Assembly (NCBI RefSeq): GCF_947503705.1
Contig: NZ_CANNES010000002.1
Coordinates: forward strand, 62,001-126,000
DNA length: 64,000 bases
Source of the DNA: an uncultured Tateyamaria sp.
GTDB lineage: Bacteria; Pseudomonadota; Alphaproteobacteria; Rhodobacterales; Rhodobacteraceae
Direction of reading: 5' to 3'
This document shows positions 17,531-31,759 of this stretch, piece by piece. A program made the position numbers and the translations under genes. Each line of letters begins with the position of its first letter. Positions within the stretch are counted from its first letter, which is position 1. Under the pieces are notes generated by a model, which saw only the letters and a list, made by a program, of their open reading frames with translations, made no database searches and was not told the DNA's origin.

Positions 17531-18451
17531 TCAAGTGGACCCCGAGTGTGCTTTTGCGAACCAAGCCTGCAACGCTTCGGCCACCTGCACCACAGGACTT
17601 CGCTCCGGCTCGTCAGAGCGAAACTCGCACTTCCAATTGACGACAATAGGCTTAGGGGACAAAGGCAGCGCAACGATGCGCTTGGACAGGATATGCGGCT
17701 CTACCGCCCATCGGGCGAGGATGCTTGTTCCCTGATTGGCCGCGACCAGTTCGATGATCGCTTCCGGTATCTCAACTGATGCGGTCCAGGTCGGATAGCG
17801 CCTTTCGGGGCGAAACAATCGCGCAAACTCCTGATCCGGTTCAGGGATTTTCGTGAATGTGATGAACCTCTGCCCTTCGATGTCACGCGCTGAAACCGTG
17901 TCGAACTTTGCCAGCGGGTGTTCAGGCGCGCAGATGCACACCAAAGGATCCGTAAACAGCGGCAACGCCCGCGTGGCCGGGTGCCCGTGTTCACCAGAGG
18001 TAATGGCGAGATCCACGTGCCGGTCCAGTAACGACGGGATCAGACCGCGCCGCGTGTCAGACATGATCTGAATGTCAATGCGCTCGGTCTGTGTGCGAAA
18101 GCTTTCGAGGAAGCTGGGGAACCAATGGAAGGCGCTGTAATTCTCGACAGCGATGCGCACGACATGGTCGATGCCTGCGTTCATCCGCCGGACTTCATCT
18201 TCGATCAGGAACAGTTCTTCGAGAAATTTTTCACTGAAGTTGGCGAGGTATTCCGCCGCGGCCGTCATGCGCAATCGCTTGTGGGTCCGTTCAAAGAGCG
18301 GCACACCAAGGCGCCTCTCGGCCTCTTTTATCCGATGGGACAATGCCGAAGGTGTCAGCCCAAGGGTGTCGGCGGCGTCAACAACCCGCCCGGTCCGACC
18401 AAGGGATCGGATCATTTGCAGGTGTCTTATGTCGAGGCGTGGTTCTTGCAT
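17531..18451 (-). CDS. LysR-family regulator, MetR-like
   Basis: This 306-residue regulator has an N-terminal winged helix (RVVDAADTLGLTPSALSHRI, then LGVPLFER) and a substrate-binding half that begins IAVENYSAFHWFPSFLESF. That stretch resembles the matching segment of E. coli MetR, so I place it in the MetR branch. MetR responds to homocysteine; whether this protein does is unknown. It is divergent from an aminotransferase gene 103 bases away, and a MetR-form box (TGAA-N5-TTCA) lies just upstream of its own start. Start at 18451 gives normal family length. Confidence 0.85.
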   Translation of the reverse strand: MQEPRLDIRHLQMIRSLGRTGRVVDAADTLGLTPSALSHRIKEAERRLGVPLFERTHKRLRMTAAAEYLANFSEKFLEELFLIEDEVRRMNAGIDHVVRIAVENYSAFHWFPSFLESFRTQTERIDIQIMSDTRRGLIPSLLDRHVDLAITSGEHGHPATRALPLFTDPLVCICAPEHPLAKFDTVSARDIEGQRFITFTKIPEPDQEFARLFRPERRYPTWTASVEIPEAIIELVAANQGTSILARWAVEPHILSKRIVALPLSPKPIVVNWKCEFRSDEPERSPVVQVAEALQAWFAKAHSGST

Positions 18452-18554: not shown

Positions 18555-19943
18555 ATGAACACGCAATCTGCAATGAATTCGCCCCGCGCTTATGATCGGT
18601 TGAATCACGTCCACGGGCAGACGGATTTGCGGGGCCATCAGGACAATGGGCCGACTGCAATGGTCGTGAATGGCCACGGGGTGCGGTTCGTTACAGACGA
18701 AGGGCAAAGCATCATTGACGGCTTTTCCGGCCTGGGCTGCGTTTCGCTTGGCTATAACAATGATCGTCTGGCCAAGGCCGCCTTCGAACAGATGCAAGAA
18801 CTGCCCTTTGCGCCCACGTTTTATGGCCGCTCGCATCCGAAAGTCGCAGAGTTGGCCCACACGCTGACGTCCAAGGCTGCCGTGCCTTTCGAGAAGGCCA
18901 TGTTCCAATGCTCGGGGTCCGAGGCGAACGATACGATGATCAAGTTCATCTGGGCGCGCAACATCGCCCGTAGTCAGCCACAGCGGCGTCGGATGATTTC
19001 GCGGTGGCGCGGATACTACGGAAACACAGTAGCTGCTGTGGCGCTTTCCGGGCAGCCGCATATGCATGCCAATTTTGGTCTTCCAATGGATGACTTTCTA
19101 AAGCTTTCCACCCCCAACTATTACCTCCACGCTGCTGACGGAGAGAACGAGCTAGAATTCTCGGCACGCATGGCGGCAGAATTTGAAAAGACAGTGCTTG
19201 ATGCGGGTCCCGATACAATCGCGGCCTTTTTTGCGGAACCCATGCAGTCGGGGGGCGGCGCCATTCGTCCACCGGAAGGTTATTGGGACGCGATGCAGGC
19301 CATCATCCGCAAATATGACATCCATTTCCATGTCGACGAGACCGTCACCGGATTTGGCCGCACCGGGCACTACTGGGGGGCACAGGCCTTTGGGCTGACC
19401 CCGGACAGCACTACCTGCGCCAAGGCGCTGACCGCAGCCTTTTTCCCGATGTCAGCCGTTATGTTTCGGCAAGATCTGTTCGATGACCTGATGAAAAATT
19501 CCGATGCAGCCGGCGTACTCGGCCACGGATTCACCTATGCGGGTCACCCGGTCGGTGCCGCCGTCGCGCTTGAGGCCTTGTCGATTTATGACGACATTGA
19601 TCTCGTCGGTCATGTGCAGAAGGTGTCAAAACCATTTCTTGCCGGTTGCGAGGCACTGATGGACCATCCACTGGTTGGCGACGTGCGCGGCATCGGCCTC
19701 TTTTGCGGCATCCAATTGGTACAGGACAAGGCCAGTCGGCGACTTTGGGACCCCAAGCTGAAGGTGGGCACCATGGTTCAGGACAGCGCCCATGCGCGCG
19801 GGCTGTACCTTAGGTCCATCCCCCCAGACCGCATCAGTTTCATGCCACCGCTGATCATCTCCAAAGATGAAATCATTGAGGCCACGGCGATCCTGAAAGA
19901 CGCACTTGATGACGTCTGGGCAGAGGTGCGTGGCCGGGCCTGA
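18555..19943 (+). CDS. Class III (omega-type) pyridoxal-phosphate aminotransferase
   Basis: This 462-residue cytoplasmic enzyme is a fold-type I, class III aminotransferase. The PLP lysine is Lys290 in CAKALTAAFFPMSAV, the ring-nitrogen aspartate is Asp261 in VDETVTGFGRTG, and the phosphate loop is CSGSEANDT near 119-127. The family includes omega-amino acid:pyruvate, diamine and taurine-type transaminases; the exact amine donor cannot be set. It is divergent from the MetR-like regulator, which probably controls it. A hairpin lies 34 bases after its stop. Confidence 0.88.
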   Translation: MNTQSAMNSPRAYDRLNHVHGQTDLRGHQDNGPTAMVVNGHGVRFVTDEGQSIIDGFSGLGCVSLGYNNDRLAKAAFEQMQELPFAPTFYGRSHPKVAELAHTLTSKAAVPFEKAMFQCSGSEANDTMIKFIWARNIARSQPQRRRMISRWRGYYGNTVAAVALSGQPHMHANFGLPMDDFLKLSTPNYYLHAADGENELEFSARMAAEFEKTVLDAGPDTIAAFFAEPMQSGGGAIRPPEGYWDAMQAIIRKYDIHFHVDETVTGFGRTGHYWGAQAFGLTPDSTTCAKALTAAFFPMSAVMFRQDLFDDLMKNSDAAGVLGHGFTYAGHPVGAAVALEALSIYDDIDLVGHVQKVSKPFLAGCEALMDHPLVGDVRGIGLFCGIQLVQDKASRRLWDPKLKVGTMVQDSAHARGLYLRSIPPDRISFMPPLIISKDEIIEATAILKDALDDVWAEVRGRA

Positions 19944-19977
19944 CCAATCAGCGCAGCGCTTAGCCCTTCAACCCGAA

Positions 19978-20001
19978 AAGTCGGCTTTTACGAGCCGACT
20001 T
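19978..20001 (-). terminator. Terminator between convergent genes
   Basis: AAGTCGGCT (19978-19986) and AGCCGACTT (19993-20001) form a perfect nine-pair stem with a six-base loop. Read on the minus strand it is followed by a short T run (CTTTTCGG), so it fits best as the end of the long minus-strand operon, but it may also stop the aminotransferase transcript. Confidence 0.75.
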
Positions 20002-20054
20002 CTATGGCGTGCGACTTGTCATCTCAGGCATAAGCGACAGAAAGCGGCCTCGGG

Positions 20055-21320
20055 CTAGGACGCTGCGCCATCTACGATTTCACGCATGGCCTGAAGGAAG
20101 GCTGACACCTCGGCGACCGAATTGTAGTGGCACATCGAAACGCGCACGGCCGATGGCAACCCCAAAGGATCAAGAATGTTTCCTGAGTAATGATCTGCTT
20201 TGCGGGTGTGCGTTCGGATACCGCGTGCGCGCAGTGCTGTGACCAGATCAGGGGCATCTGTCCCTTCCAGCGTGATGGAAACCAATCCCTCGCGGGCCGG
20301 ATTATCCTCGCCACCGATGATGCCCACGCCCGGCAGGTCCGCCAGACCGGCCAGATTGCCCGTGCCAAAGATCATTGCGTTGGTCAGCGCCTGTTCATGA
20401 TCATGGATGGCCGCGCCCGCCGCCTCGATGCGTGCGCGCTTGTCCTGCGCATCACTCACCTGACCGCCCAGCCAGTCGAAATACTCGACCACATTGGACA
20501 TTGTAGCATAGGCACCTGTGTCGCGTGTTCCCAATTCCCAATTGCCTTCGGGCCCACCGATCAGGCTGTCATGCGGCAATGCGTTCAACCGGGGTGATGT
20601 CCAGGCGATCCCGTAGCCATGGCGCGAAAACACCTTGTAGGGAGAAATCACATAGCCATCGATGTCGTAGCCCTTGATGTCGATCAGCCCATGACTTGCG
20701 TGCTGGATGCCGTCGACAATGATGATCGCATCCGGCGCGACGGAACGGATGGCCTTTGCCACGGCGGCAACATCCACGCCCATGCCGGTCACCGGCGACG
20801 TGTGCAGGATCGTGGCCACCCGGATGTCAGGGCGCAGATGCGGGATGTAATCCTCCGCCGTCACGCAGCCGGTCGCATCATTGTGCGGCACCTGAACATA
20901 GGGCTTGCCTGCCACCTTGGCCCAGCGTGTGCAGGCACTGCGGGTCGCAGGGTGCTCAAGTGTCGACCCGAGGACAACACCACCGTCCTCTGTTTCCAGA
21001 ATGGCGTTCATGATCAGTCGAAACAGCAGTTCAGTCCCGCTTTCACCGGCAAAGATATCCCCCTCTGGCGCGTTGAAGAAGACACGCATATCGTCCTTGG
21101 CCTGATTGATCACACGCACAAGTTCATGTGCCATTTCATTGTCGCGCCCCTGATTGTCCGGGATCGCGGCAAAGTGGTTGGACGTCTCGACAACGCTGTT
21201 CAACGTCAAGGCACCGCCCGCGTTTTCAAAGAAGACGCGCGGCCCGGCCACAGGGCAAGTTTCGACATGTGCAAAACGCCCGCGAATGTCGGCCATCAAG
21301 GTGGGGTTGTCGGTAATCAT
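20055..21320 (-). CDS. Class V aminotransferase / cysteine-desulfurase-fold PLP enzyme
   Basis: This 421-residue enzyme has the class V aminotransferase fold used by cysteine desulfurases, isopenicillin epimerases and several lyases. Lys229 (ISPYKVFSRHG) is the expected PLP lysine, and Asp203 and His207 lie in VDGIQHASH, matching the cofactor-binding D-x-x-[QH] block. No SufE partner or obvious desulfurase Cys loop is seen, and the catabolic context argues against an iron-sulfur role. It is the last gene of the TRAP-linked operon, 48 bases after the DUF4392 gene with AGAAGG before its start. It probably transaminates or cleaves an amino acid in that pathway; the substrate is unknown. Confidence 0.82.
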   Translation of the reverse strand: MITDNPTLMADIRGRFAHVETCPVAGPRVFFENAGGALTLNSVVETSNHFAAIPDNQGRDNEMAHELVRVINQAKDDMRVFFNAPEGDIFAGESGTELLFRLIMNAILETEDGGVVLGSTLEHPATRSACTRWAKVAGKPYVQVPHNDATGCVTAEDYIPHLRPDIRVATILHTSPVTGMGVDVAAVAKAIRSVAPDAIIIVDGIQHASHGLIDIKGYDIDGYVISPYKVFSRHGYGIAWTSPRLNALPHDSLIGGPEGNWELGTRDTGAYATMSNVVEYFDWLGGQVSDAQDKRARIEAAGAAIHDHEQALTNAMIFGTGNLAGLADLPGVGIIGGEDNPAREGLVSITLEGTDAPDLVTALRARGIRTHTRKADHYSGNILDPLGLPSAVRVSMCHYNSVAEVSAFLQAMREIVDGAAS

Positions 21321-21368
21321 TGGTGTCTGCCTTCTCTGAGACCGCCATGGGTTCTTGTGGTTTTAAAT

Positions 21369-22376
21369 TTAGGCCAGGGCCTTGCGTACAACGGCCTCGG
21401 CCATTTCCGCCAATGCTATATGGGTCGTGTCACGGATACCATCGACGTGAGGGTCGATTATGCCGTCAGCCGAATTGATCAGGCCGTTGGCCGTCATCAC
21501 CTCTAGCAGCCGTGCCTCCATTGCCGGTGTGTGAACCAAACGGGCGTCGCCAACGCGCAAAGCCATTGCGGCGCAAATAGCGCTGCAGCCCCAGTTCGAA
21601 ACGGCCGCCGTCACCAGAACATCCGCACCGCTGACCGCGCCGATACCCCCGCCACAAGGGCAATCACCAGGGCCGCCGTAAGGGATCGCCGTTTTGACCA
21701 CGTCCGCCACCACGCCCATGCCAATCTCGTTCCCGCCATCGCCGACTGCAACGACAGGTATGCCCCGCGCCAGACCTTCGTCAAAGAGCATATCAATACG
21801 CGCCCGGCCCATACCATAGTCGCGCCCGCGCATGTTGTAATAAATGCCGTTCTCGTTGCGCCCGACACGCTCTGTCGAAAACAAAAGGTCAGGCTTCAAA
21901 CGCTTTAGCATGTCGCGCGCCGCCGCCTGCCCGGCTACATCCTCAACCGGATAGGATTCCAGCACAACGCAAGCCATAGACCCGTCGGCGCTGGCCTCCC
22001 TTGCGGTCGCATGGTCAACCACGGCTAGGCCACAGGCTCGCAGAACCGCCGCCATCGCCGCGATCAACGTTTCTTCGATCACCACGACGGTTGTGGCCCT
22101 GCGCGCCAGCCACAGGGCCCGCACCACCGCCGCGGCCCCCGATGGGCCGTCATTTTCACCCAGTTCGGGCGACAGCCACGCGCGCGACACCGAACCGGTC
22201 GTCACGATCACCGAGCCCCCCTGGGGGATCGCCAGCAATCTGTCCGCTGCCGCCGCCACGAGGGGGCCACCAACAAGCGCACGCGACGCGTCATATAGCG
22301 GTTCAATCCCGCGGTTGCCGATGTCGAGGTTGACCAATCTGTCCAGCTGTTCGTCATATTTGACAAAATCGCTCAT
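21369..22376 (-). CDS. DUF4392 / D-glutamate cyclase-like protein
   Basis: This 335-residue protein resembles the DUF4392 family, whose mammalian member is D-glutamate cyclase (D-glutamate to 5-oxo-D-proline). Diagnostic blocks are ERVGRNENGIYYNMRGRDYG and VGDGGNEIGMG, followed by a Cys-rich PCGGG loop. An early motif, IVTTGSVSRAWLSPELGENDGPSG, is also family-like. I chose the ATG at 22376, preceded by GGGGGAAGC and overlapping the upstream stop by ATGA; a start at 22409 lies inside the previous gene. The context with PLP enzymes and dehydrogenases suggests it handles an acidic amino acid, possibly of D-form; this is inference. Confidence 0.78.
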   Translation of the reverse strand: MSDFVKYDEQLDRLVNLDIGNRGIEPLYDASRALVGGPLVAAAADRLLAIPQGGSVIVTTGSVSRAWLSPELGENDGPSGAAAVVRALWLARRATTVVVIEETLIAAMAAVLRACGLAVVDHATAREASADGSMACVVLESYPVEDVAGQAAARDMLKRLKPDLLFSTERVGRNENGIYYNMRGRDYGMGRARIDMLFDEGLARGIPVVAVGDGGNEIGMGVVADVVKTAIPYGGPGDCPCGGGIGAVSGADVLVTAAVSNWGCSAICAAMALRVGDARLVHTPAMEARLLEVMTANGLINSADGIIDPHVDGIRDTTHIALAEMAEAVVRKALA

Positions 22377-23632
22377 CTGCTTCCCCCAAACAGTGTTTCC
22401 TCGAACCACGCCCCGTCATCCAGTCGCTCTGCGACCATTCCCGCGGCTCTGTCCAGCGCTGTCACCAATGCCGCCACGCCCCCAACCGCGTCCAATGCGC
22501 CAGCAGTGGGTTTCAAGCGCAGCGACACCCGCCCGCCCGGGGCCCCATGCGTGTTTACCGTCAACACCCCATTGTCACGCAAAAGGATCATCCCAATCGC
22601 TGCGGTTGCTTCGGCCGGCACGATGTTTGCAGTCTTGCGTCCGGCCATCACAAGCACCCGTTTCAGAACATCCTGTTCATCCAGCATCGGCCCTAAGTCA
22701 GAGCGTTGCACAACGTCCGCACCCCAGGCATGCGCCAAGGCATCAGCAATGGACTGACCATCGCGGGCCTCATTGCGCAAATCCTCTGGGTCAAACTTTT
22801 GCAGGCTGCGCATCGCACCCGCCGCAATCGGTGCGCGGGCCTCTTGGCCCAGCTCTGACGCCTTGGCGAGTGTTGCCAGAACCGGCGTGGATGCACCGCA
22901 CAGGATACCGGCCCGGGGGCCGGACAAACCCGCCTTGTCGGCATTGGTGATCGCAAAATCCGCCCCCATGGTCAGGCTTTCAGCCCCACCATACAGCACG
23001 GGCCGAAGCCGCGCGCCATATGCTTCGTCCATGAAAACCGTCGCACCCGCTGCCTTGCCTGCGGAAATGGCAACATCTGTCTGTGCGTCCGGCAGCCGCG
23101 CCAGTGTACTGGTCACTGTGGTCAGCACCATCAAGGCGGGGCGATGTTCCACAAGCGCTGCGGCAGGCACGGCACTGCCCGGTATCTCGATCAGCTCGAC
23201 ACCCGCCAGTTTGCAGCCGCGCACAACGGACGCGTGGCTTCGGTCACCGTCGGGCACCACGGACACAACGGGCCGCCCATCTGACAGAGCCAGGATGGCA
23301 GCGACGATCCCGGCGCTGGTCCGGTTGGTTACGGCCACGGTGTCTCCGCCCCCGAAATGGGTAATGGCGACCTCTGCCAATTCGCCAGCGAAAAGACCGG
23401 GGCCGATCCATTCCTCGCAATAGGTATCCAGGTCTTCGGGTTTGAGCGGGAAGTAACGCGGATTACCGGTGAAAACGCCGATGGCTTCGCTTCCCCGCGA
23501 CGCAACGACATCCGCTGCAATCGCCTGCGCGTGCCGCAGACGTCGAATTTCCGCTGCGCTGTCCGTCAGAAACCGGCCGCGAGCAAAGCCCACGGAAGGA
23601 TCAAGCGCATTGCCGAAACGATCATTGCCCAT
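22373..23632 (-). CDS. SelA-like PLP-dependent enzyme
   Basis: This 419-residue enzyme looks like the SelA/DgaE branch of fold-type I PLP enzymes. Lys233 in NADKAGLSGPRAGILCG stands where SelA proteins carry their PLP lysine before a GPQAG-type loop, and Asp202 in FMDEAYGA is the cofactor aspartate. SelA-like enzymes outside selenocysteine synthesis include ammonia lyases of amino-sugar acids. No selenocysteine genes are near, so a lyase or related catabolic role is likelier. The ATG at 23632 comes two bases after the aldehyde dehydrogenase stop; an ATG-like start at 23656 would overlap that gene. Coupled to the next gene by ATGA. Confidence 0.72.
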   Translation of the reverse strand: MGNDRFGNALDPSVGFARGRFLTDSAAEIRRLRHAQAIAADVVASRGSEAIGVFTGNPRYFPLKPEDLDTYCEEWIGPGLFAGELAEVAITHFGGGDTVAVTNRTSAGIVAAILALSDGRPVVSVVPDGDRSHASVVRGCKLAGVELIEIPGSAVPAAALVEHRPALMVLTTVTSTLARLPDAQTDVAISAGKAAGATVFMDEAYGARLRPVLYGGAESLTMGADFAITNADKAGLSGPRAGILCGASTPVLATLAKASELGQEARAPIAAGAMRSLQKFDPEDLRNEARDGQSIADALAHAWGADVVQRSDLGPMLDEQDVLKRVLVMAGRKTANIVPAEATAAIGMILLRDNGVLTVNTHGAPGGRVSLRLKPTAGALDAVGGVAALVTALDRAAGMVAERLDDGAWFEETLFGGSR

Positions 23633-23634
23633 GA

Positions 23635-25110
23635 TTAGACTGCCGCCGTCACGCATTTGCGGAACGTGTAGGCCTCAAGCGCGCCTTCGATGGAGTACTC
23701 AGACCCCATGCCCGATTGTTTGATCCCGCCATAGGACATGCCGGGGATTTGCCCGCCGCCCTGATTTACCTGAACCCAGCCTGCATCAATCGCCCGGGTC
23801 ATCCGAATGATCGTGCTCATGTCGTGGGTAAAGATAAAAGCGGCCAGCCCGTAATGCGTATCGTTGGCCTGAGCGATCATGTCAGCCTCGTCCTCCCAAG
23901 CGAGTGCGACAAGCACCGGGCCGAACACCTCTTCGCGCGCAATGCGCCAGGAATTGTCGAGGCCGGTCAGGATCGTCGGGATCGGGTGAAAGCCCGCGTC
24001 TGTGCCCTTGGGCGTCTCGCCGGTGAGGAAGATCGCCCCCTGCGCTTCGGCCTCGGCGACATAGGCGCAGATTTCGTCGTAACGCTCGGCATTGACCACG
24101 GCACCAATGTCGCTGTCTTCGTCGAGGGCATCGCCGACGGTCATGGCAGCGGCCTTTTCCGCGACGCGGGGCATCAGGTCATCCCAGACCGATTTATGGA
24201 CAAACAGGCGCGACCCGGCGGTGCAGCTTTGCCCCTGCCGCGCAAAGCGCATGGCATTCACGACCCCCTGTGCCGTGGCGTCGATCCGCTCGGGCGTGCA
24301 GGCATCGGGAAAGATGATGCAGGGGCTCTTGCCGCCCAGTTCAAGCGTCACATTGGCGATCCTGTCGGCGGTGGAATGGGACACCAGCTTGCCGACCTCG
24401 GACGATCCGGTGAACGAAACCTTTGCAATGCCGGGATGATTGGCAAGGGCGGCACCTGCCTCTTCGCCAAGGCCCGTGACCACGTTGAAGACACCTGGGG
24501 GGAATATATCAGCGGCCAATTCAACCAACCGCAATACAGCCAAAGGCGCGTCTTCGGCAGGTTTCAGCACAAGGCAATTACCGGTGGCCAGTGCCATTGA
24601 AATCTTGACCGCCCCCAGCTGCAGCGGTGAATTCCACGGAATAATCGACCCGACAACGCCCAGCGGTTCACGCGTGGCATAGGAGAAAATTCCCGGCCCC
24701 AACGGCAATGTCTCGCCTTTTTGTTCGACGGCCACACCACCGTAATACTTCAGCACACCTGCAGCACCCGCCGCTTCGCCGCGCGACTGGGTGCGCACCG
24801 CGTTTCCACTTTCAGCAGCCAGAATGCGGGCGACTTCCTCCGCGTGGGCGCTGAGCCGGTTGCCCAGTTCGGTCAGCATCGCGCCCCGTTCGGATGCAGG
24901 GCGCGCAGCCCAATCGCGACGCGCACGTTCAGCGGCGGCAACGGCGAGGTCAATTTCGGCTGCTGTTCCGCGCCCAATTTCACAGATCACTTTGCGACGG
25001 GACGGGTTTTCCACCGCCAGTTTTGCGCCGTTCTCCGGCCAGTGCCATCTTCCGTCTATGTATGATCCGGCAAGCCCGTCGGTCGGCAAGGTGTATTCAA
25101 GTAGTGCCAT
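23635..25110 (-). CDS. NAD(P)-dependent aldehyde dehydrogenase
   Basis: This 491-residue enzyme has all hallmarks of the aldehyde dehydrogenase superfamily: Asn160 in IIPWNSPL, Glu257 in TLELGGKSP, the glycine motif FTGSSEVGK near 233-241 and the nucleophile Cys296 in GQSCTAGSR. It would oxidise a semialdehyde or aldehyde intermediate to a carboxylate. It sits three bases after the hydroxyacid dehydrogenase gene, which can supply such a semialdehyde. The exact substrate is not visible. Confidence 0.92.
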   Translation of the reverse strand: MALLEYTLPTDGLAGSYIDGRWHWPENGAKLAVENPSRRKVICEIGRGTAAEIDLAVAAAERARRDWAARPASERGAMLTELGNRLSAHAEEVARILAAESGNAVRTQSRGEAAGAAGVLKYYGGVAVEQKGETLPLGPGIFSYATREPLGVVGSIIPWNSPLQLGAVKISMALATGNCLVLKPAEDAPLAVLRLVELAADIFPPGVFNVVTGLGEEAGAALANHPGIAKVSFTGSSEVGKLVSHSTADRIANVTLELGGKSPCIIFPDACTPERIDATAQGVVNAMRFARQGQSCTAGSRLFVHKSVWDDLMPRVAEKAAAMTVGDALDEDSDIGAVVNAERYDEICAYVAEAEAQGAIFLTGETPKGTDAGFHPIPTILTGLDNSWRIAREEVFGPVLVALAWEDEADMIAQANDTHYGLAAFIFTHDMSTIIRMTRAIDAGWVQVNQGGGQIPGMSYGGIKQSGMGSEYSIEGALEAYTFRKCVTAAV

Positions 25111-25113
25111 GTT

Positions 25114-25998
25114 TCAGTCCTGTGCTTCATCGGGCAGCGCCCGCAACGTTTTGTAGATCGCGGAAAAGTCCAAATTTCCGTCCATTCTCGCAAACTCCGT
25201 GAACGCGCGCGCAGCTTCTGCGCCGAAGGGTGTGATCTGACCTGTGGAAGTCGCCGCCGCTTGCGCCAGTCGCAAATCCTTTGCCATGAGCGCCGAGGCG
25301 AAGCCCGGGGCAAATGCGTTAGACGACGGCGCGGCAGGCACCACGCCCGGGATGGGACAGCGATTTTCGAGCGTCCAGCTCTGCGCAGCGGCACCTGCGC
25401 AAAGCGCATAGAACTTGTGCAGGTCCAGTTGCAACGCGTCAGCCAGCGCAAAGCCTTCCATCACCGCCATTGCCGTGATGCCGCAGATCATGTTGTGGCA
25501 CGCCTTGGCCGCCTGCCCCGAACCTGCCGGGCCAAAGAACGTGATCTTTGCGCCCATGGCTTCCAGAACTGGCTTGGCTCTAGCAAAGGCTTCATCCGCG
25601 CCGCCGACCATAAAGCTGAGGCTGCCCGCCTCCGCCCCTGTTGGCCCACCGGATACCGGCGCATCCAGCATCATGAGGTCCTTCGACTTGGCTTGGGCGG
25701 CCAAATCGCGCGCCGTATCAACGTCTATGGTCGAGCAGTCGATAAGCAGCGCGCTAGAGGCCGCCCCGGCGTGGACGACCTCGGCGTGGACCTTGGCGAC
25801 GTGCCGCCCTTCGGGCAACATGGTCACAATGATCTCTGCCTCGGCGATGGCCGCAGCCGTTGGCTCAACCGCACCATCGAACATGGCGCGCATCTCGGCA
25901 GAGATATCCATGCCGAGAACATCATGACCCGCCGCCTGCAACACTTTCGCCATGGGCCGCCCCATCGTGCCCAGCCCGATAAAAGCAATATTTGCCAT
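25114..25998 (-). CDS. Beta-hydroxyacid dehydrogenase (3-hydroxyisobutyrate dehydrogenase family)
   Basis: This 294-residue NAD(P)-dependent enzyme shows the Rossmann start IAFIGLGTMGRPMAKVL, the substrate motif DAPVSGGPTGAEAGSL near 112-126 and the catalytic Lys165 in GSGQAAKACHNM. The family oxidises beta-hydroxy acids to semialdehydes (3-hydroxyisobutyrate, tartronate semialdehyde, hydroxymethylglutarate and similar). The start is the ATG at 25998, after GGAAAGAGAG; a TTG just before it is less likely. It lies 19 bases after the TRAP permease gene and directly before the aldehyde dehydrogenase. Confidence 0.9.
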   Translation of the reverse strand: MANIAFIGLGTMGRPMAKVLQAAGHDVLGMDISAEMRAMFDGAVEPTAAAIAEAEIIVTMLPEGRHVAKVHAEVVHAGAASSALLIDCSTIDVDTARDLAAQAKSKDLMMLDAPVSGGPTGAEAGSLSFMVGGADEAFARAKPVLEAMGAKITFFGPAGSGQAAKACHNMICGITAMAVMEGFALADALQLDLHKFYALCAGAAAQSWTLENRCPIPGVVPAAPSSNAFAPGFASALMAKDLRLAQAAATSTGQITPFGAEAARAFTEFARMDGNLDFSAIYKTLRALPDEAQD

Positions 25999-26017
25999 CA
26001 ATTCTCTCTTTCCATAG

Positions 26018-27304
26018 TCAGCGCATCAACATCTCTGGCAGCCACAAGGCCAAGTTCGGAAACACGGCAAGCAGCGCAATCATCGCAGCCATGGCCACAA
26101 CGAACGGCAACGCCCCCAGCATGACATCCGTCATCGGGCCGCGCCCACGCACCCCCTGCACAACATAAAGGTTCAACCCGATGGGCGGGGTAATCAGAGC
26201 AGTTTCAATCAGGATCATCATGACGATCCCGTACCAGACCGGGTCAAAGCCAAGGCTGAACATCAAGGGCGCGATGATCGGGATCGTCGTGATCATCATG
26301 GATAGCGTTTCCATGAAGCAGCCAAGCACCACATAAAAAATAACAACGGCCAGCAGCATCTGCATCGGTGACAGCCCAAGTCCTGTCACAAACTGGTTGA
26401 GCTGCGAGGTCAGACCGATGCCGGACAGGATCATGTTCAGGATATATGCCGCCATGATGATCAGAACGATCATGGCCGTGGTCACGACCGTGCCTTCCAG
26501 CGCCTCGTTCAGCATCTTCCAGTTCAGCCGCCCCCGCCCCGCCGCGATGATCAATGCGGCGACAACTCCCAAAGCCGCAGCCTCGGTCGGCGTGGCAAAG
26601 CCTGCATAAATCGAGCCAATCACCACGACAAAGACCATGATGGGAGGCAGAACCCCGATTGTGCCTGCGAACCGTTCGGCCAGAGTATAGTGAGCGCGGT
26701 GACCCGCCATTTCGGGCCGCAACAGCACGATGCCTATGATCGCCGCCATAAACAGCCCCGCCAGCATCAGCCCGGGAATGATCCCCGCGATATAAAGCTG
26801 CGGAACAGAGGTGTTGGTCAGAATACCGTAAATGATCAGGTTCACCGACGGCGGGATCAGAATGCCAAGTGTGCCACCCGCTGCAAGTGTGCCAAGAAAC
26901 AGCTTGGGTCCATAACCGTGGCGGTCAATCTGCGGCACAGCAACCGTGCCGATCGTGGCCGCCGTTGCGACGGAAGAGCCGGAAGTGGCCGAGAAAAGCG
27001 CACAGGCCCCGATATTGGCATGCATCACGCCACCCGGGAGCCAGCCCAACCATTTGGCCAGCGCGTCATACATCGCGTCAGCCACACCCGAGCGCAGCAT
27101 GATCTCTCCGAGCAGGACAAACAACGGGATCGCCATAAGCAGGAAGCCGGATGAGGCTGTCCAAGCAACCTCGCCCGACGCCTGATAGAGCGGCAGGAAA
27201 CCGAAAGTGCGATCCAGAGTGACGGCCATCACGCCCAGAGCCGCCGCAATCGGCAGGCTAAGCGCGATCAAGACGATCAAGAGAATGAGGGCAGTCATGA
27301 GCAT
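26018..27304 (-). CDS. dctM: TRAP transporter large permease (DctM type)
   Basis: This 428-residue inner-membrane protein is the large subunit of a tripartite TRAP importer. It begins with a strong helix (LILLIVLIALSLPIAAALG) and carries family motifs such as FSATSGSSVATAATIG and GGTLGILIPPSVNLIIYG near residues 105-155, plus PTEAAALG. About 12 hydrophobic segments are visible and length is normal. It works with the small permease four bases upstream and the periplasmic receptor. AGGAG precedes the start. Confidence 0.93.
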   Translation of the reverse strand: MLMTALILLIVLIALSLPIAAALGVMAVTLDRTFGFLPLYQASGEVAWTASSGFLLMAIPLFVLLGEIMLRSGVADAMYDALAKWLGWLPGGVMHANIGACALFSATSGSSVATAATIGTVAVPQIDRHGYGPKLFLGTLAAGGTLGILIPPSVNLIIYGILTNTSVPQLYIAGIIPGLMLAGLFMAAIIGIVLLRPEMAGHRAHYTLAERFAGTIGVLPPIMVFVVVIGSIYAGFATPTEAAALGVVAALIIAAGRGRLNWKMLNEALEGTVVTTAMIVLIIMAAYILNMILSGIGLTSQLNQFVTGLGLSPMQMLLAVVIFYVVLGCFMETLSMMITTIPIIAPLMFSLGFDPVWYGIVMMILIETALITPPIGLNLYVVQGVRGRGPMTDVMLGALPFVVAMAAMIALLAVFPNLALWLPEMLMR

Positions 27305-27307
27305 CGG

Positions 27308-27877
27308 TTATCTACGCTCCTGCGCGTCACGAATTTCGGCGTCGGTTTCTTCTTGCGCGCCGCGCACTCCGGCAATCGCATGCGCAGACGTCAGGTCGCG
27401 GCGCAGCAACGCGCGAATGGTTTCGGCGATCAGAATGGCCGTGACCGCACCAAAAACCCAAAGGCCTGCCGCCCAAAGCCCGTGCGGAATCCAACGCGGC
27501 ACCTGCATCTGACTGTTGGAGACAGCACCCGTGCGCCATGAGTTTTCGAACAATCCGGTGGCAAACCAGGCAAGGAAAATAGCGAAGGCAAACATGGAAA
27601 TCAAAGCAAGCAGATCAAGGACAGCCTGCCCCGGTCGGGGCAGCTGTGCGTGCAAGATGTCGATACGCACATGGGCGCGCCGGACGATCGCCAAAGAGCA
27701 ACCCCAAGTCACTGTAATCGCCAGGATATAGCCCGCAACTTCGTCGGCATTGATGAGGCTGATCCCCAAAAGTTTGCGGCTAACCACTTCAACAGCGATC
27801 ATCGCGACCGACAGCAGCAATGCCACGCCGCAGATGCGCGCCATCCAAGTCGAAACACGTTCAGCAAACTCATACAT
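27308..27877 (-). CDS. dctQ: TRAP transporter small permease (DctQ type)
   Basis: This 189-residue membrane protein has the four-helix layout of DctQ, with the family motif GCSLAIVRRAHVRIDIL near residue 62. The ATG at 27877 follows CAGGACCGG and is preferred; an ATG at 27895 adds six residues but has no ribosome site. It couples the periplasmic receptor to the large permease. The C-terminal tail beyond the last helix is charged and cytoplasmic. Confidence 0.88.
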   Translation of the reverse strand: MYEFAERVSTWMARICGVALLLSVAMIAVEVVSRKLLGISLINADEVAGYILAITVTWGCSLAIVRRAHVRIDILHAQLPRPGQAVLDLLALISMFAFAIFLAWFATGLFENSWRTGAVSNSQMQVPRWIPHGLWAAGLWVFGAVTAILIAETIRALLRRDLTSAHAIAGVRGAQEETDAEIRDAQERR

Positions 27878-27961
27878 GGCCGGTCCTGACGACATTTTGT
27901 GGGTGACTTATCGACCGCGCAACCTGCGCCGCGCGGTCGGATTTGGAATGGGCGTTTGACG

Positions 27962-29002
27962 CTATTCGATGGTCACACCGACCACCGAACCGACGGATGC
28001 ATTCCATGTTGCGACACAGTCTGCGCCACATTGTGCGCCCCAATTTGCCAGCACCACGTCGCGCAAGATCTTGTCGCGCAACTCGATATCCGCGTCGCTT
28101 ACCGAAACACGGGTCATGCTGCCGGGATTGTCGCGCGTACAGCCCGCCTCGCCTGCGTTGCAGGCAAAACCTTCGGCGGTTTCGCTGCCAGCCCCGGCCC
28201 AGACTTCGTTTTCAAAGGCTGTGAACTGATCTGTCAGGAAGGTGCGGACACTTTCGTCCAGTCCGTCCCAGAGTTCGCCATTGGCCACAAGTACGACAGG
28301 CGACCACGCGATGGGCAATTCATAAATGTGGGTCGCAACCTCATTCCAGCGGGCGTTGAAGCCAGACATCGATCCGGTGATCGCACAGTCGATCACTCCG
28401 GTTTGCAGGCCTTGTACCACTTCCCCAAAACTCATCGAGACAGCCGTTGCACCGAGGGCATCGACAAAATCCCCAATGGCCGAGCCTGACGCGCGGATCT
28501 TGCGCCCTTCAAGATCGGACAGGCCCGACAAGGCATCACGGCAATAAACGACTTGGGCGGAATAGGGATAGACCCCCAACAATTCGACGCCATAAGCCGT
28601 GCGGTATTCTTCGGCCATGACTGGCTTCCAAGCGTCCGAAATGGCACGCGCCGTCGCAATATCGGGCGCAAGGCCAGGCAGGTCGTTTCCACCGTTCAAG
28701 GCGTTGTCGCCGATCAGATAGCCCATCGGTGTTTCCGCGAATTGCAGCGTGCCTTGCTCAACAAGGCGAATGATTTCGGACCCATCCATACCCAGTTCAT
28801 TGAAGGGGCGAATATCGGCAGTGATCGCACCGCCAGACACTTCGGGCAGTGTCTTTGTAAAGAACGGCTGAGTGAAATCGGTATACATCGACACCATCCC
28901 CCAAGAGCCGACGACATTCAGCTTGGTTTCGGGCAAGTCCTCGGCGACTGCGGGGGCCGCAGCAAGGACAAGGGCGAGTGCAGATAGATTTGGCAGCTTC
29001 AT
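27962..29002 (-). CDS. dctP: TRAP transporter substrate-binding protein (DctP type)
   Basis: This 346-residue periplasmic receptor has a signal peptide (MKLPNLSALALVLAAAPAVA) and DctP-family features, including the segment LEGRKIRASGS with the arginine that usually holds the ligand carboxylate. Two Cys pairs are visible near the C-terminus (CNAGEAGC and CGADC), plus one Cys near residue 155, suggesting disulfides in the periplasm. The ligand should be an organic acid or amino acid. Strong GGAGGGAATGAA precedes the start. First structural gene of the operon after the LysR gene. Confidence 0.9.
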   Translation of the reverse strand: MKLPNLSALALVLAAAPAVAEDLPETKLNVVGSWGMVSMYTDFTQPFFTKTLPEVSGGAITADIRPFNELGMDGSEIIRLVEQGTLQFAETPMGYLIGDNALNGGNDLPGLAPDIATARAISDAWKPVMAEEYRTAYGVELLGVYPYSAQVVYCRDALSGLSDLEGRKIRASGSAIGDFVDALGATAVSMSFGEVVQGLQTGVIDCAITGSMSGFNARWNEVATHIYELPIAWSPVVLVANGELWDGLDESVRTFLTDQFTAFENEVWAGAGSETAEGFACNAGEAGCTRDNPGSMTRVSVSDADIELRDKILRDVVLANWGAQCGADCVATWNASVGSVVGVTIE

Positions 29003-29047
29003 TTCATTCCCTCCATGAGAAACATGAAGTGAGCCTAGAAAATCGCA

Positions 29048-29065
29048 ACAATCGAATCCAATTGT
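29048..29065. promoter_or_regulatory. Candidate regulator site before dctP
   Basis: An imperfect 18-base palindrome (ACAAT outer arms, seven of nine positions paired) lies 45 bases upstream of the dctP start, in the 89-base gap behind the LysR gene. Its size and T/A edges fit a LysR-type site, but it could be chance. Confidence 0.3.
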
Positions 29066-29091
29066 CGTTTTTGCTCGGTCTCAATCGTTTT

Positions 29092-29991
29092 TTACGATCT
29101 GAGTGACTTCCAATCCTGTGCGATCATGGCCGCAATGCCTGCGGCCTCTTGGGCAAGGTCATTGCCTGGTTCTGTCCGATAGGACGCTGTGAAACTAAGC
29201 GGATTGAGCACAATCGGCGTCGTGATCTCTACCAGTTTTCCAGCTTCGATATAGGGCGCTGCATAGATTTGTGGGGCTGTGCATACGGCCAGTTTTGCCT
29301 CGGCAATCGCCACGCTGGCACCCAGTGCGTTGGACGAAAACAATCGCGGTGTCTGGACACCCGCCAGACGAAGACTTTCGACCAGCTCGATATAGGGTCG
29401 CGAATTCATTGCATAGCTCAGGATCGGAAAGGCCGCCAGCGCTTCCACAGTAACCACATCCGTTGCAGCAAGCGGGTGATCAGGCGCGACAGCCCAGATC
29501 ATCGGCAACTCCAACAGTGGCACGTTGGCGATGAGGGCATGTGAAATCGGGCCCATCAAGAGCGCCAAATCCAGCCCCCTCTCCACGAGTTGATCCCTTT
29601 GGAAAGCGGTGTTGTTGACGATGATCTCGACGCTGGAATTGGGGTATTGTTGAGAATATGCCCCAATAAACCCGGGCAAAATAGTCGAGGCGAGTGTCTC
29701 GGATACGCCCAAGCGAAGGGTGCCTTCACGGTAGGGGTCAAGGCCCACAGCACGTGACATGCGGTCCATGCTTGCAATCACTTCGGTCGCATGGGTCAGC
29801 AGTTCGCGCCCCTTCGGTGTCAAAGCCACTGAATTCGAAGTGCGCGCAAACAATTCCGCGCCAAGATCGCTTTCAAGCCCGGCAATCCGTGCTGACACGG
29901 TGGACTGGGTCGTGTTCAGCTGGCTGGCAACTTTTCCAAAGTGCCGCAGATGGGCCAGCGCGACAAAGGTTTCCAGCGTGATCCGTTTCAT
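29092..29991 (-). CDS. LysR-family regulator of the TRAP operon
   Basis: This 299-residue regulator starts ITLETFVALAHLRHFGKVAS and has a standard winged helix (LNTTQSTVSARIAGLESDLGAELFAR) followed by a two-lobe effector domain beginning GTLRLGVSET. Unlike many LysR genes it is on the same strand as its probable targets and lies 89 bases upstream of dctP, so it may be co-transcribed as well as acting on the promoter in that gap. Its effector is probably the transported acid or a metabolite of it. Confidence 0.88.
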   Translation of the reverse strand: MKRITLETFVALAHLRHFGKVASQLNTTQSTVSARIAGLESDLGAELFARTSNSVALTPKGRELLTHATEVIASMDRMSRAVGLDPYREGTLRLGVSETLASTILPGFIGAYSQQYPNSSVEIIVNNTAFQRDQLVERGLDLALLMGPISHALIANVPLLELPMIWAVAPDHPLAATDVVTVEALAAFPILSYAMNSRPYIELVESLRLAGVQTPRLFSSNALGASVAIAEAKLAVCTAPQIYAAPYIEAGKLVEITTPIVLNPLSFTASYRTEPGNDLAQEAAGIAAMIAQDWKSLRS

Positions 29992-30262
29992 GGTGCCCCG
30001 TTCAGGAATAGGCCATGGGCGGCAAAACTACGGGCAAAGGTATACTGCACCTGCGTGCGATCAGGTCGCCTGTTTCAAATGTAGTAATGCGGTTCATGGC
30101 CAGCTTTCGTAGGTTGGGTTCAGTCACGCTACAACCAAACAAAGCTCCAAAGAAATGTATTCTTGGGTGAAAACCCCTCATCTGGATGCGCGAATTTTTG
30201 AATTGAGTTCATCAAGGCTGCTTGTGCAGTGTCTGCGCAAACGCGCTTCATGAAAGAGTAAC

Positions 30263-31759
30263 ATGGCACGCAGAAGCAAAAGACGCACGTCCGTCACGGC
30301 AACAGCTGTTGCGCCCGCACCGCGAGGTGGGCGTTTTCGTCCATTGGATGCGGATGGGGTCGCGCGGATCGTTCAGGCGGCGATGGATATTCTGGCCCGG
30401 ACCGGGATCGGAGGATGCCCGCCCGACATAGCCGGACGCATGGTGGACGCGGGCGCGACGCGACGCGCGGATGGGCGCGTCTGCTTTCCCCAGGCAATGG
30501 TTGAGACTGCCATCGCCCGTGCAGCAAAGCGTGTCAATCTGCCGGGCTTTGTCGAGAACTTGGGCCTGACCATCGGTGGTGGCAAAGTGCATATCGGCAC
30601 CGGCGGCGCCGCGACCGAAATCCTGGACAGCAGCACCAACAGTTTTCGCGGTGCGCAGCTTGATGATCTTTATGACTTGATGCGCCTCGTCGGACAGCTG
30701 CCAAACATTCACTACGGCCTGCGCCCGGTAATCGCGCGCGACATGGATCAGCCGTTCTTACTGGATATGAACACGGGTTTTGCCTGCCTCAAGGCTTGCG
30801 CCAAGCCCATCGGCATCAGCTTTGACAGCGCCAAACATCTTGATCCGGTGGTGTCGATGTTTGACATGGCACTGGGACGTGAGGGCGGATTTCGCGCCCA
30901 GCCGTTTTGCTTTGGCGTGATTGTTCATGCGGTCTCGCCACTGCGATACGCGCCCGAGGGCATTGAGATCATGCAACGCGCCATGGCCCATCGGATGCCG
31001 CTGCAAATCTGCACGGCGGCGCAAGCGGGCGCGACTAGTCCGGTCACTTTGGCCGGGGCTTTGGCGCAGGGCCTCGCTGAAACGCTCGCGGGCTTGATGG
31101 TTGTGGATGTGATCGAGCCGGGGTTCCCCTGCATTTTTGCATTCATGCCGTTCATCTCGGATTTGCGCACCGGGGCAATGACCGGCGGGTCCGGAGAGGC
31201 GGCCGTTGCCGCCGCCGCCGCCGCGCAATTGCTGCTTCATCTTGGCCTGCCCTCAACGGCATCTGCGGGCATGACGGATGCCAAGATACCCGATGCGCAG
31301 GCGGGGTATGAAAAGGGGTACACCGTCACACTGGCCGCACAGGCCGGCGCCGACATGATTAACCTCAGTGTCGGGATGCTCGGGTCGATCATGGCCGCAT
31401 CGCCGGAGGCTCTGGTCATCGACGACGACATGTGCGGTGCCATTCTGCGCACCGTGCGCGGGGTCGAAATGACGGACACCGCGATTGATCTGGACCGGAT
31501 CGAGGCGGTGGCCACGGGGGCCGGCCACTATCTGGGCGAGGCGCAGACGCTGGAACTGATGAAAACGGAATACGTCTATCCCAGCATTGGCAACCGACAA
31601 AGCATCTCTGACTGGACTGACGCCGGGTCCCTCACGATCTGGGATGTTGCCAAGGATCGCACTGCAGAACTGCTGGCCGAAAAGCCAACCCATTTGCCTG
31701 CCGAGCGGGAAGCGGCGATCCGCGCCGCCTTTGATATTCGACTGACTGAAGGAAGTTGA
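30263..31759 (+). CDS. MttB-family (trimethylamine methyltransferase-like) protein
   Basis: This 498-residue protein belongs to the MttB superfamily of corrinoid-dependent methyltransferases. Signature segments include GKVHIGTGGAATEILD, HAVSPLRYAPEGIEIM and AGGTD-like stretches in the barrel, with no in-frame TAG, so it is a non-pyrrolysine member. Relatives demethylate glycine betaine, proline betaine or carnitine. The N-terminus is basic (MARRSKRRTS) and probably not a signal. It is followed four bases later by an FAD/folate demethylase-like gene. No corrinoid-binding protein gene is seen nearby, which leaves its methyl acceptor open. Confidence 0.85.
   Translation: MARRSKRRTSVTATAVAPAPRGGRFRPLDADGVARIVQAAMDILARTGIGGCPPDIAGRMVDAGATRRADGRVCFPQAMVETAIARAAKRVNLPGFVENLGLTIGGGKVHIGTGGAATEILDSSTNSFRGAQLDDLYDLMRLVGQLPNIHYGLRPVIARDMDQPFLLDMNTGFACLKACAKPIGISFDSAKHLDPVVSMFDMALGREGGFRAQPFCFGVIVHAVSPLRYAPEGIEIMQRAMAHRMPLQICTAAQAGATSPVTLAGALAQGLAETLAGLMVVDVIEPGFPCIFAFMPFISDLRTGAMTGGSGEAAVAAAAAAQLLLHLGLPSTASAGMTDAKIPDAQAGYEKGYTVTLAAQAGADMINLSVGMLGSIMAASPEALVIDDDMCGAILRTVRGVEMTDTAIDLDRIEAVATGAGHYLGEAQTLELMKTEYVYPSIGNRQSISDWTDAGSLTIWDVAKDRTAELLAEKPTHLPAEREAAIRAAFDIRLTEGS

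What the first reader, a model, noticed from the sequence alone, without database searches (positions are those of the whole stretch)
20055..29991. TRAP-linked operon with DUF4392, SelA-like and class V PLP enzymes: candidate undescribed catabolic pathway
Eight genes lie in one direction behind a LysR gene with gaps of a few bases or overlaps. They encode TRAP uptake, a beta-hydroxyacid dehydrogenase, an aldehyde dehydrogenase, a SelA-like enzyme, a D-glutamate-cyclase-like DUF4392 protein and a class V PLP enzyme. I know of no described pathway with this set. The dehydrogenase pair suggests hydroxyacid to semialdehyde to acid; the two PLP enzymes and DUF4392 suggest an amino, possibly D-form, acidic substrate.
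Basis: partly seen in the sequence, partly recalled or inferred. Interest (0 to 1): 0.75.

Follow-up and report, generated by a model that had tools for sequence, protein, structure and literature searches.

The report
Undescribed betaine-type catabolic gene cluster
A rare, mobile set of genes in marine bacteria probably strips methyl groups from a betaine-like nutrient and then breaks down the remaining amino acid with an enzyme trio that also sits on soybean-symbiont plasmids; the nutrient itself is still unknown.

Summary
The functional unit is larger. In an Acidimicrobiales MAG all eight enzyme genes lie in one direction. TRAP is variable (3 of 12). Soybean-nodule rhizobial and Burkholderiaceae plasmids carry the trio with a second DUF4392, amino-acid ABC transporters and no MttB. 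Best reading: B12-linked N-demethylation of a betaine-type amino acid, then PLP, DUF4392 and ALDH breakdown of the bare amino acid; substrate unknown. MttB/DMGDH also occur without the trio (4 of 6 other genomes). Interpretation partly supported; pathway not found in the papers searched.

The parts
17531..18451 (-). LysR0: LysR regulator, divergent from AT3; probably the cluster-specific regulator (inferred)
   Evidence: HTH_1 + LysR_substrate; orthologue (43-78%) in 8 of 12 marine-type loci counting the window
18555..19943 (+). AT3: class III aminotransferase (PRK06105-like)
   Evidence: Aminotran_3; NF004767 512.1 bits, cut-off 517; orthologue in 6 of 12 marine-type loci, window included, one of them fragmentary
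20055..21320 (-). Class V PLP enzyme, nearest solved relatives UstD and FGM3; PLP lysine K229 (by alignment)
   Evidence: Aminotran_5; PDB 7mkv 3e-23, 9x4u 1e-16; in 8 of 12 marine-type loci (one a fragment at a contig end), but homologues in 54 of 149 family genomes
21369..22409 (-). DUF4392 / GLUCM-like_C protein with a predicted metal-binding acidic site E85 D87 E180 D224 E228 D323
   Evidence: PF14336 203.5 bits; the six TON_0340 metal residues invariant in 10 of 10 aligned proteins
22373..23656 (-). SelA-like PLP enzyme (MJ0158/TIGR03576 relative), PLP lysine K241 (by alignment)
   Evidence: orthologue followed by DUF4392 in 17 of 17 loci where the contig continues
23635..25110 (-). Aldehyde dehydrogenase, core member
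   Evidence: Aldedh 475 bits; none of the 25 NCBIfam models shown reaches its cut-off; orthologue in 17 of 18 loci
25114..26001 (-). 3-hydroxyisobutyrate-dehydrogenase-like beta-hydroxyacid dehydrogenase
   Evidence: TIGR01692 286.8 bits, cut-off 291.6; 11 matches in the own genome including itself, the next at 48%; orthologue in 7 of 12 marine-type loci
26018..27304 (-). TRAP large permease DctM
   Evidence: PF06808; this TRAP set in 3 of 12 marine-type loci
27308..27895 (-). TRAP small permease DctQ
   Evidence: PF04290
27962..29002 (-). TRAP binding protein DctP, conserved carboxylate Arg170
   Evidence: PF03480; nearest PDB 2pfy 5e-15
29092..29991 (-). LysR regulator that travels with the TRAP genes
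   Evidence: close homologue next to the TRAP genes in L011 (89%) and L015 (48%), the two other loci with this TRAP set
30263..31759 (+). MttB-family (non-Pyl) methyltransferase, proposed quaternary-amine:corrinoid demethylase
   Evidence: PF06253 324.1 bits, no stop inside; nearest PDB glycine betaine methyltransferase 9yce 3e-41 and 2qne 4e-41; in 10 of 12 marine-type loci
31764..34190 (+). DMGDH-like FAD oxidase/GcvT fusion, proposed N-demethylase to tetrahydrofolate
   Evidence: DAO + FAO_M + GCV_T + GCV_T_C; pairs with MttB in 10 of 12 marine-type loci

Best explanation
A sporadic, probably horizontally mobile catabolic cluster (window 17531-34190) for a carboxylate that carries an N-methylated, probably quaternary, amino group, that is, a betaine-type amino acid. 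Steps: (1) TRAP takes up the carboxylate (inferred; the transporter is interchangeable). (2) MttB moves a methyl group to a corrinoid protein encoded elsewhere in the genome, and the DMGDH-like FAD/GcvT protein oxidatively removes the remaining methyl groups onto tetrahydrofolate (inferred from families). (3) This exposes a primary amine, which PLP enzymes need: AT3 and class V (marine version only) and the SelA-like enzyme act on it by transamination, side-chain cleavage and alpha,beta-elimination (inferred). (4) DUF4392, with its metal-binding acidic site, cyclises or opens a small amide/lactam-like intermediate and works with the SelA-like enzyme, its constant neighbour (adjacency shown, reaction inferred). 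(5) The beta-hydroxyacid dehydrogenase, where present, and ALDH carry a hydroxyl/aldehyde carbon to an acid for central metabolism (inferred). Soil versions lack the demethylation genes and would import the unmethylated amino acid through amino-acid ABC transporters (inferred). Shown here: gene content, co-conservation, conserved catalytic residues and a B12-binding-protein gene in the genome. Not shown: any reaction or the substrate.
For: MttB + DMGDH orthologues beside the trio in 10 of 12 marine-type loci; L003 is a 3.1-kb contig and L012 is cut upstream. In L017 (Acidimicrobiales MAG) AT3, class V, MttB, DMGDH, HIBADH, ALDH, SelA-like and DUF4392 lie on one strand, 942-12273, matched stretches at most 42 bases apart, at 49-73% identity, which argues against a recent roseobacter contaminant. 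SelA-like and close (54-62%) DUF4392 matches are in the same 18 plasmid records; the next DUF4392 hit drops to 37%. Trio identities agree: Mantel rho 0.82, 0.80, 0.73. Among 149 family genomes SelA-like and MttB orthologues (4 each) share 3, hypergeometric 3e-5, 8e-4 without the own genome. Own genome has 7 MttB-family genes and a 233-aa B12-binding protein beside homocysteine S-methyltransferase-family and DUF1638 genes; MtgC is a B12-binding protein in Ruegeria, where several MtgB-like genes have unknown substrates (PMC12478193, passages). L006 has a second DMGDH-like gene in tandem. Soil loci lack MttB but keep SelA-like and DUF4392, with amino-acid ABC transporters. DUF4392 metal residues 6 of 6 in 10 of 10 proteins; SelA-like K241 in 8 of 8. 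Class V recurs beside other DMGDH-like genes in 3 of 15 further family loci and beside an FAD-dependent oxidoreductase of that size in 3 of 4 plasmids opened.
Against: No substrate or reaction is tested. MttB orthologues occur without any close SelA-like gene in 4 of 6 other genomes (G073, G182, G296, G394; against 10, 16), so the demethylation pair is not tied to the trio. G053 has the trio but no close MttB anywhere in a 97%-complete genome. On its open side (about 9 kb) L012 shows no MttB or DMGDH. AT3, HIBADH and class V are each missing from some marine-type loci. 12 of 15 further class V loci have no DMGDH-like gene at the threshold used. In the window the MttB/DMGDH genes and AT3 are on the other strand from the operon, so co-transcription is not implied. 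The unmethylated-substrate idea for soil loci is inference from gene absence. L016 and L017 are MAGs, whose binning can be wrong. DUF4392 homologues have been called a D-glutamate cyclase and a Mn phosphatase, so its reaction is open.
Confidence: 0.6

Rival explanations
1. One reading: the eight TRAP-linked genes alone degrade an acidic, possibly D-form amino or hydroxy acid; the flanking MttB, DMGDH and AT3 genes belong to another pathway.
For: One compact operon. Soil versions carry the trio without demethylation genes. MttB lives without the SelA-like gene in 4 of 6 other genomes (against 10, 16). DctP is nearest, weakly, to 2pfy, recalled to be a pyroglutamate-binding Bordetella protein.
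Against: In 10 of 12 marine-type loci MttB/DMGDH sit beside the trio, in L017 on the same strand in the same run of genes. TRAP is in 3 of 12. Class V is largely independent.
Confidence: 0.15
2. It is an unrecognised version of an already known betaine or cyclic amino-acid route (for example proline/hydroxyproline betaine, carnitine, ectoine or 5-oxoproline), with unusual enzymes filling known steps. This partly overlaps the best explanation.
For: In SelA-free MttB loci the neighbours are EutA/arylmalonate-decarboxylase-like genes (3 of 3 opened) and hydantoinase/oxoprolinase genes (2 of 3). DctP is weakly similar to 2pfy and 2vpn (recalled as pyroglutamate and ectoine binders). L011 has three enolase-family-looking ORFs nearby (recognised by eye).
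Against: EutA (66-67 of 318 bits) and caprolactamase (456 of 1000 bits, L082 only) matches are far below cut-off. The bare products of proline betaine or trimethyllysine are ordinary amino acids that need no SelA-like/DUF4392 step (established knowledge).
Confidence: 0.15
3. Special case of the best explanation, a betaine-lipid head group: MttB/DMGDH convert N,N,N-trimethylhomoserine (from DGTS) or 2-(hydroxymethyl)-3-(trimethylammonio)propanoate (from DGTA) to the free amino acid; dehydrogenase and ALDH oxidise its hydroxymethyl arm; PLP enzymes remove the amine.
For: The HIBADH-like enzyme misses the 3-hydroxyisobutyrate dehydrogenase equivalog cut-off by 5 bits, and the DGTA head group is 3-hydroxyisobutyrate bearing an ammonio group (recalled chemistry). 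DGTS occurs in green algae (abstract start); its presence in marine bacteria and DGTA in brown algae are recalled.
Against: No HIBADH orthologue in 5 of 12 marine-type loci (two of them truncated) and non-orthologues in soil. It gives SelA-like and DUF4392 no clear role. I did not look for ether-cleaving or lipase genes, and the one search (20 of 220 papers listed) showed no paper on bacterial use of these head groups by title.
Confidence: 0.08
4. Not a nutrient pathway: the SelA-like/DUF4392 pair repairs or detoxifies a damaged metabolite and hitch-hikes with catabolic genes.
For: Invariant adjacency with varying partners.
Against: With ALDH in 17 of 18 loci and often with transporters and a LysR gene; rare and sporadic (4 of 149 family genomes), unlike housekeeping repair.
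Confidence: 0.05

Closest known systems
MtgB/MtgC/MtgD glycine betaine demethylation of roseobacters and D. hafniense (PMC12478193, passages)
   Same: MttB-superfamily non-Pyl methyltransferase, B12-binding protein encoded in trans, DMGDH-like protein for later demethylation (last point recalled)
   Different: MttB here is only a distant relative of solved glycine betaine methyltransferases (E 3e-41) and is clustered with PLP, DUF4392 and ALDH genes that glycine betaine does not need (established knowledge)
Mammalian D-glutamate cyclase (PMC5339696, passages) and Thermococcus TON_0340 (PMC5132392, passages)
   Same: DUF4392 domain; six acidic metal residues of TON_0340 conserved
   Different: No DUF1445 domain; beside a SelA-like gene; activity unknown
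UstD / FGM3 class V enzymes
   Same: Nearest solved relatives of the class V protein; FGM3 cleaves C-beta/C-gamma of 4-hydroxyarginine to L-alanine and a second product (PMC10967133, passages)
   Different: The putative FGM3 base Tyr225 (PMC10367076, passages) appears to be Phe231 here, as in UstD (matched by eye; chain numbering differs by one); substrate unknown
MJ0158 (TIGR03576) and SelA
   Same: MJ0158 is the nearest solved relative (4e-29); PLP lysine in a conserved -DK-...-GPR- stretch
   Different: 162 bits against a TIGR03576 cut-off of 304; sits among catabolic genes
Ectoine (Eut) and 5-oxoproline/hydantoin/lactam (HyuAB) routes
   Same: Related gene families take the trio's place in SelA-free MttB/DMGDH loci (L069, L082, L083)
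   Different: None of those genes is among the cluster genes of the window; matches are well below equivalog cut-offs

Membership tests
MttB superfamily (PF06253) | Pfam model over cut-off | tested here: met
   324.1 bits against 25
Trimethylamine methyltransferase (TIGR02369, pyrrolysine type) | Equivalog cut-off; in-frame amber codon (feature recalled) | tested here: not met
   278.8 of 525 bits; no stop inside
MtgB-type corrinoid-dependent demethylase | A candidate corrinoid partner protein in the genome | tested here: met
   233-aa B12-binding protein next to S-methyl_trans-family and DUF1638 genes; partnership itself untested
MtgB-type corrinoid-dependent demethylase | Methyl transfer from a quaternary amine to the corrinoid | not testable with these tools
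   needs protein
D-glutamate cyclase | GLUCM-like C-terminal domain with six metal acidic residues | tested here: met
D-glutamate cyclase | DUF1445 N-terminal domain as in the mammalian enzyme | tested here: not met
   346-aa protein, only GLUCM-like_C, residues 22-332
D-glutamate cyclase | D-Glu to 5-oxo-D-Pro activity | not testable with these tools
   needs protein
TIGR03576 (MJ0158 family) | Curated family cut-off | tested here: not met
   162.0 of 304.45 bits; the only NCBIfam hit
SelA-like PLP enzymes | PLP-binding lysine | tested here: met
   K241 invariant in 8 of 8 and aligned with a lysine of MJ0158; its role is by homology
Cysteine desulfurase (SufS, TIGR01976) | Curated cut-off | tested here: not met
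   104.9 of 475.1 and 167.7 of 352.35 bits
UstD/FGM3-type C-C lyases | FGM3 candidate base Tyr225 | tested here: not met
   aligned residue read by eye as Phe231, as in UstD
3-hydroxyisobutyrate dehydrogenase (TIGR01692) | Equivalog cut-off | tested here: not met
   286.8 of 291.6 bits, a near miss
DctP-type TRAP binding protein | Conserved carboxylate arginine | tested here: met
   R170, invariant in 3 of 3, aligned with PDB relatives
Pyroglutamate-binding DctP subfamily | Pyroglutamate binding | not testable with these tools
   best PDB match only 5e-15; passages name two pyroglutamate-bound B. pertussis DctP proteins, their link to 2pfy/2pfz is recalled

The most novel reading that the evidence does not exclude
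A new cobalamin-linked catabolic route for a marine betaine not yet known to be degraded. Its unmethylated core, SelA-like + DUF4392 + ALDH, forms a new two-enzyme chemistry, a PLP eliminase coupled to a metal-dependent DUF4392 cyclase/hydrolase. The same core serves soybean symbionts as a plasmid-borne nutritional trait for a legume amino acid of the same skeleton, and would give the ancient DUF4392 family, which extends to humans, a bacterial pathway context.
Probability: 0.3. Interest if true: 0.8.

Novelty: new variant of a known kind. Interest (0 to 1): 0.55.

Why it matters
Roseobacter genomes hold several MttB-family genes whose substrates are unknown (PMC12478193, passages); the genome here holds 7. 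One of them is now tied to a defined, testable enzyme set. The core trio also appears on soybean-nodule rhizobial plasmids, which suggests a shared chemical skeleton between marine betaines and a plant-associated amino acid. DUF4392 is found from archaea to humans (PMC5132392, passages) with differing activity claims (phosphatase or D-glutamate cyclase); a constant PLP partner and a near-constant ALDH narrow what it can do.

Tried and rejected
AlphaFold2 models of the SelA-like protein (8 sequences, pLDDT 56.5) and DctP (3 sequences, pLDDT 41.8) were too poor, so no fold search was run.

The promoter/terminator scan of 17400-34600 found no more than shuffles give: 1 promoter-like site against a mean of 6.4, 14 terminator-like sites against 16.2.

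Annotation of the S. fredii SelA-like gene in two pieces suggested a broken copy; the matched stretch has no internal stop in L025 or in 8 other loci checked, nor has DUF4392 in 7.

Homoserine, carnitine, ergothioneine, trimethyllysine, proline betaine, allantoin, rhizobitoxine and 5-hydroxylysine were considered as substrates by reasoning only; in my view each leaves at least one core enzyme without a role, and none was tested.

Literature, 10 of 10 searches used: 'DUF4392' gave two papers. 'D-glutamate cyclase' + 'operon' gave two, one listed. 'glutamate cyclase' + 'selenocysteine synthase' + 'Bradyrhizobium' (two of three) gave none. 'trimethylamine methyltransferase' + 'dimethylglycine dehydrogenase' + 'aminotransferase class V' + TRAP (three of four) gave none. 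MJ0158 or TIGR03576 gave none. Searches gave background papers; one search gave 65 papers, the 12 listed being noise. 'Not found in the papers searched' means these searches of an open-licence library only. Papers were seen as passages (PMC5132392, PMC5339696, PMC10967133, PMC10367076, PMC12478193, PMC5812351, PMC4646407) or as listings; none was read whole.

Dropped rows: distant SelA-like hits L008/L018 (42%), L009/L019 (32%) and weak fragments L010, L032, L033 were left out of the 18-locus count; 11 of 18 plasmid hits were not opened; 27 of 67 records were not listed. One ORF next to the B12-binding gene (L091 2938-4056) had no Pfam match. One script was empty.

Full report
Observation. SelA-like here means the MJ0158/TIGR03576 kind (162 of 304 bits; MJ0158 structure 2aeu E 4e-29), not selenocysteine synthase itself.

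Relatives. The SelA-like gene is rare: 1 of 20 genus genomes (the own), 4 of 149 family genomes including the own, 4 of 385 class genomes of which only the own is close (the others 44%, 32% and a fragment), and 3 of 398 phylum genomes with only the own close. One scan of named genomes, which finds near relatives only, gave seven loci, L011-L017. Plasmids gave 18 records, of which I opened seven (L020-L025, L031). With three family genomes (L003, L006, L007) and the window this makes 18 loci: 12 marine-type (window, L003, L006, L007, L011-L017, L022) and 6 soil-type (L020, L021, L023-L025, L031).

What travels together (identities by tblastn). A DUF4392 orthologue follows the SelA-like gene in 17 of 17 loci whose contig continues (L007 ends inside the SelA-like gene). 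Plasmid-wide, the 18 records with the SelA-like gene are the same 18 that hold a 54-62% DUF4392; the next hit has 37%. An ALDH orthologue precedes the pair in 17 of 18; in five soil loci a second DUF4392, and in two of these also an MFS gene (L031 by eye), lies between. The exception, L021, has an IS element there. Marine-type loci, of 12, window included: MttB + DMGDH 10, LysR0 8, class V 8 (one a fragment), HIBADH 7, AT3 6 (one fragmentary), this TRAP set 3. Of the two without MttB/DMGDH, L003 is a 3.1-kb contig, and L012 is cut on one side and shows none on the other (about 9 kb). In L017 the eight enzyme genes are collinear on one strand (942-12273). L006 adds a second DMGDH-like gene. Identities of the three core proteins agree across loci; shared ancestry of whole genomes would also give agreement, but the loci are sporadic across Rhodobacterales, Hyphomicrobiales, Burkholderiales and Acidimicrobiales (record titles and taxonomy lines).

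The soil version. Bradyrhizobium (8) and Sinorhizobium (6) make up 14 of the 18 records; 12 of these 14 list Glycine (soybean or wild soybean) as source. On the Bradyrhizobium elkanii and Sinorhizobium plasmids opened, and in Paraburkholderia caffeinilytica and Caballeronia, the order is beta-hydroxyacid dehydrogenase (33-38% to the window's, non-orthologous), ALDH, DUF4392 number 1 (30-35%), SelA-like (57-60%), DUF4392 number 2 (54-60%), with an amino-acid ABC transporter in or beside the operon (Caballeronia by eye). MttB is absent there, and a plasmid-wide search at 1e-120 found MttB orthologues only on two Rhodobacteraceae plasmids. The P. caffeinilytica class V protein is hardly alignable to the window's (16% over 153 residues, E 0.1).

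Independence tests. Class V: 54 of 149 family genomes at 1e-60. I opened 15 such loci outside the SelA clusters; none holds a SelA-like or DUF4392 match, 3 have a DMGDH-like match and 12 have none. On plasmids, 3 of 4 opened of 24 records have an FAD-dependent oxidoreductase of similar length next to it. So class V looks like a shared accessory of roseobacter metabolism, partly in N-methyl amino-acid clusters, rather than a hallmark of this one. DUF4392: 4 of 149 at 1e-20; three close ones all in SelA-like genomes and one distant tandem pair in G040; the SelA-like gene of the fourth, G139, is cut by the contig end. MttB: 4 of 149 and 4 of 385 at 1e-150, the own genome in both; of the six other genomes two (G086, G139) have the SelA-like gene. 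Class-level runs scored at most four candidates per genome. I opened three of the four SelA-free MttB loci (L069, L082, L083; G394 not read). An arylmalonate-decarboxylase/EutA-like protein lies beside MttB/DMGDH in all three, hydantoinase/oxoprolinase in L082 and L083 (for L082 the best NCBIfam match is caprolactamase, below cut-off), a Polyketide_cyc2 protein is confirmed in L082, and AT3 + LysR0 are in L082. So one demethylation front end appears to be coupled to two different back ends. Both contain families linked to small cyclic amides or racemisation: DUF4392 (glutamate cyclase) on one side, hydantoinase/oxoprolinase and the Asp/Glu-racemase superfamily (recalled membership) on the other.

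Front end. MttB-superfamily proteins without pyrrolysine demethylate quaternary amines through a corrinoid protein; in Ruegeria pomeroyi MtgBCD does this for glycine betaine, and up to seven MtgB-like genes per genome suggest further substrates (PMC12478193, passages read). The host here has seven MttB-family genes and a 233-aa B12-binding protein next to homocysteine S-methyltransferase-family and DUF1638 genes, so a corrinoid partner could act in trans. The DMGDH-like protein has FAD and GcvT domains, the layout of enzymes that pass N-methyl carbon to tetrahydrofolate (established knowledge). PLP enzymes need a primary amine, which fits demethylation first.

Back end. DUF4392 keeps all six metal-binding acidic residues described for TON_0340 (PMC5132392, passages) in 10 of 10 aligned proteins, the second soil paralogue included. 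The SelA-like protein keeps its PLP lysine. Class V is nearest to UstD and FGM3; FGM3 splits 4-hydroxyarginine, giving L-alanine (PMC10967133, passages), but its proposed base Tyr225 (PMC10367076, passages) appears to be Phe here. DctP keeps the TRAP carboxylate arginine (PMC4646407, passages); its nearest solved relatives (2pfy, 4n4u, 2vpn; E 5e-15 to 3e-13) are too distant to name a ligand.

Verdict. The gene set is real, larger than described, and was not matched to a described pathway in the papers searched. The best reading is betaine-type amino-acid catabolism with a conserved SelA-like/DUF4392/ALDH core. The claim for N-methylated substrates rests on co-conservation and families; the substrate and every reaction remain to be tested.

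Noticed in passing
L068, L071, L084, L085: A second recurring roseobacter cluster: the same class V gene, a DMGDH-like/FAD gene (36% to the window's in L068 and L071), LysR, an MmgE/PrpD gene (annotated in L084 and L085, by eye in L068 and L071) and, in L068 and L071, a 27-29% MttB; its substrate also looks unknown.
   Followed up: partly
L069, L082, L083: MttB/DMGDH orthologues with an EutA/arylmalonate-decarboxylase-like gene, and in L082 and L083 hydantoinase/oxoprolinase, instead of the SelA-like/DUF4392 trio; PdxJ next to L069's pair.
   Followed up: partly
L030 6904-9041; G040:C4 164453-166558; soil loci: Tandem or paired divergent DUF4392 genes recur, as if two paralogues work together.
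   Followed up: no
L011 13789-21273; L015 18122-19411: A HemL-like class III aminotransferase, three enolase-family-looking ORFs (by eye) and a DMGDH-like gene lie next to the Sulfitobacter cluster; L015 also has a class III aminotransferase-like gene beside LysR0 (25% to AT3).
   Followed up: partly
L007 6932-8221; L069 2327-3784; L023 21763-23244: Sulfatase-like genes near three of the loci (Pfam for L007; annotation for L023; by eye for L069).
   Followed up: no
window 10789-16149 and 16474-17499: A 1786-aa hybrid histidine kinase with seven GAF stretches and two receiver stretches, followed by a receiver-guanylate/adenylate cyclase.
   Followed up: partly
Sinorhizobium plasmids: Many S. 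meliloti and S. medicae replicons carry a 29% DUF4392 gene; in the one opened (pSymA, L029) it sits with a tripartite tricarboxylate transporter and, some 6 kb away, hydantoinase genes.
   Followed up: no
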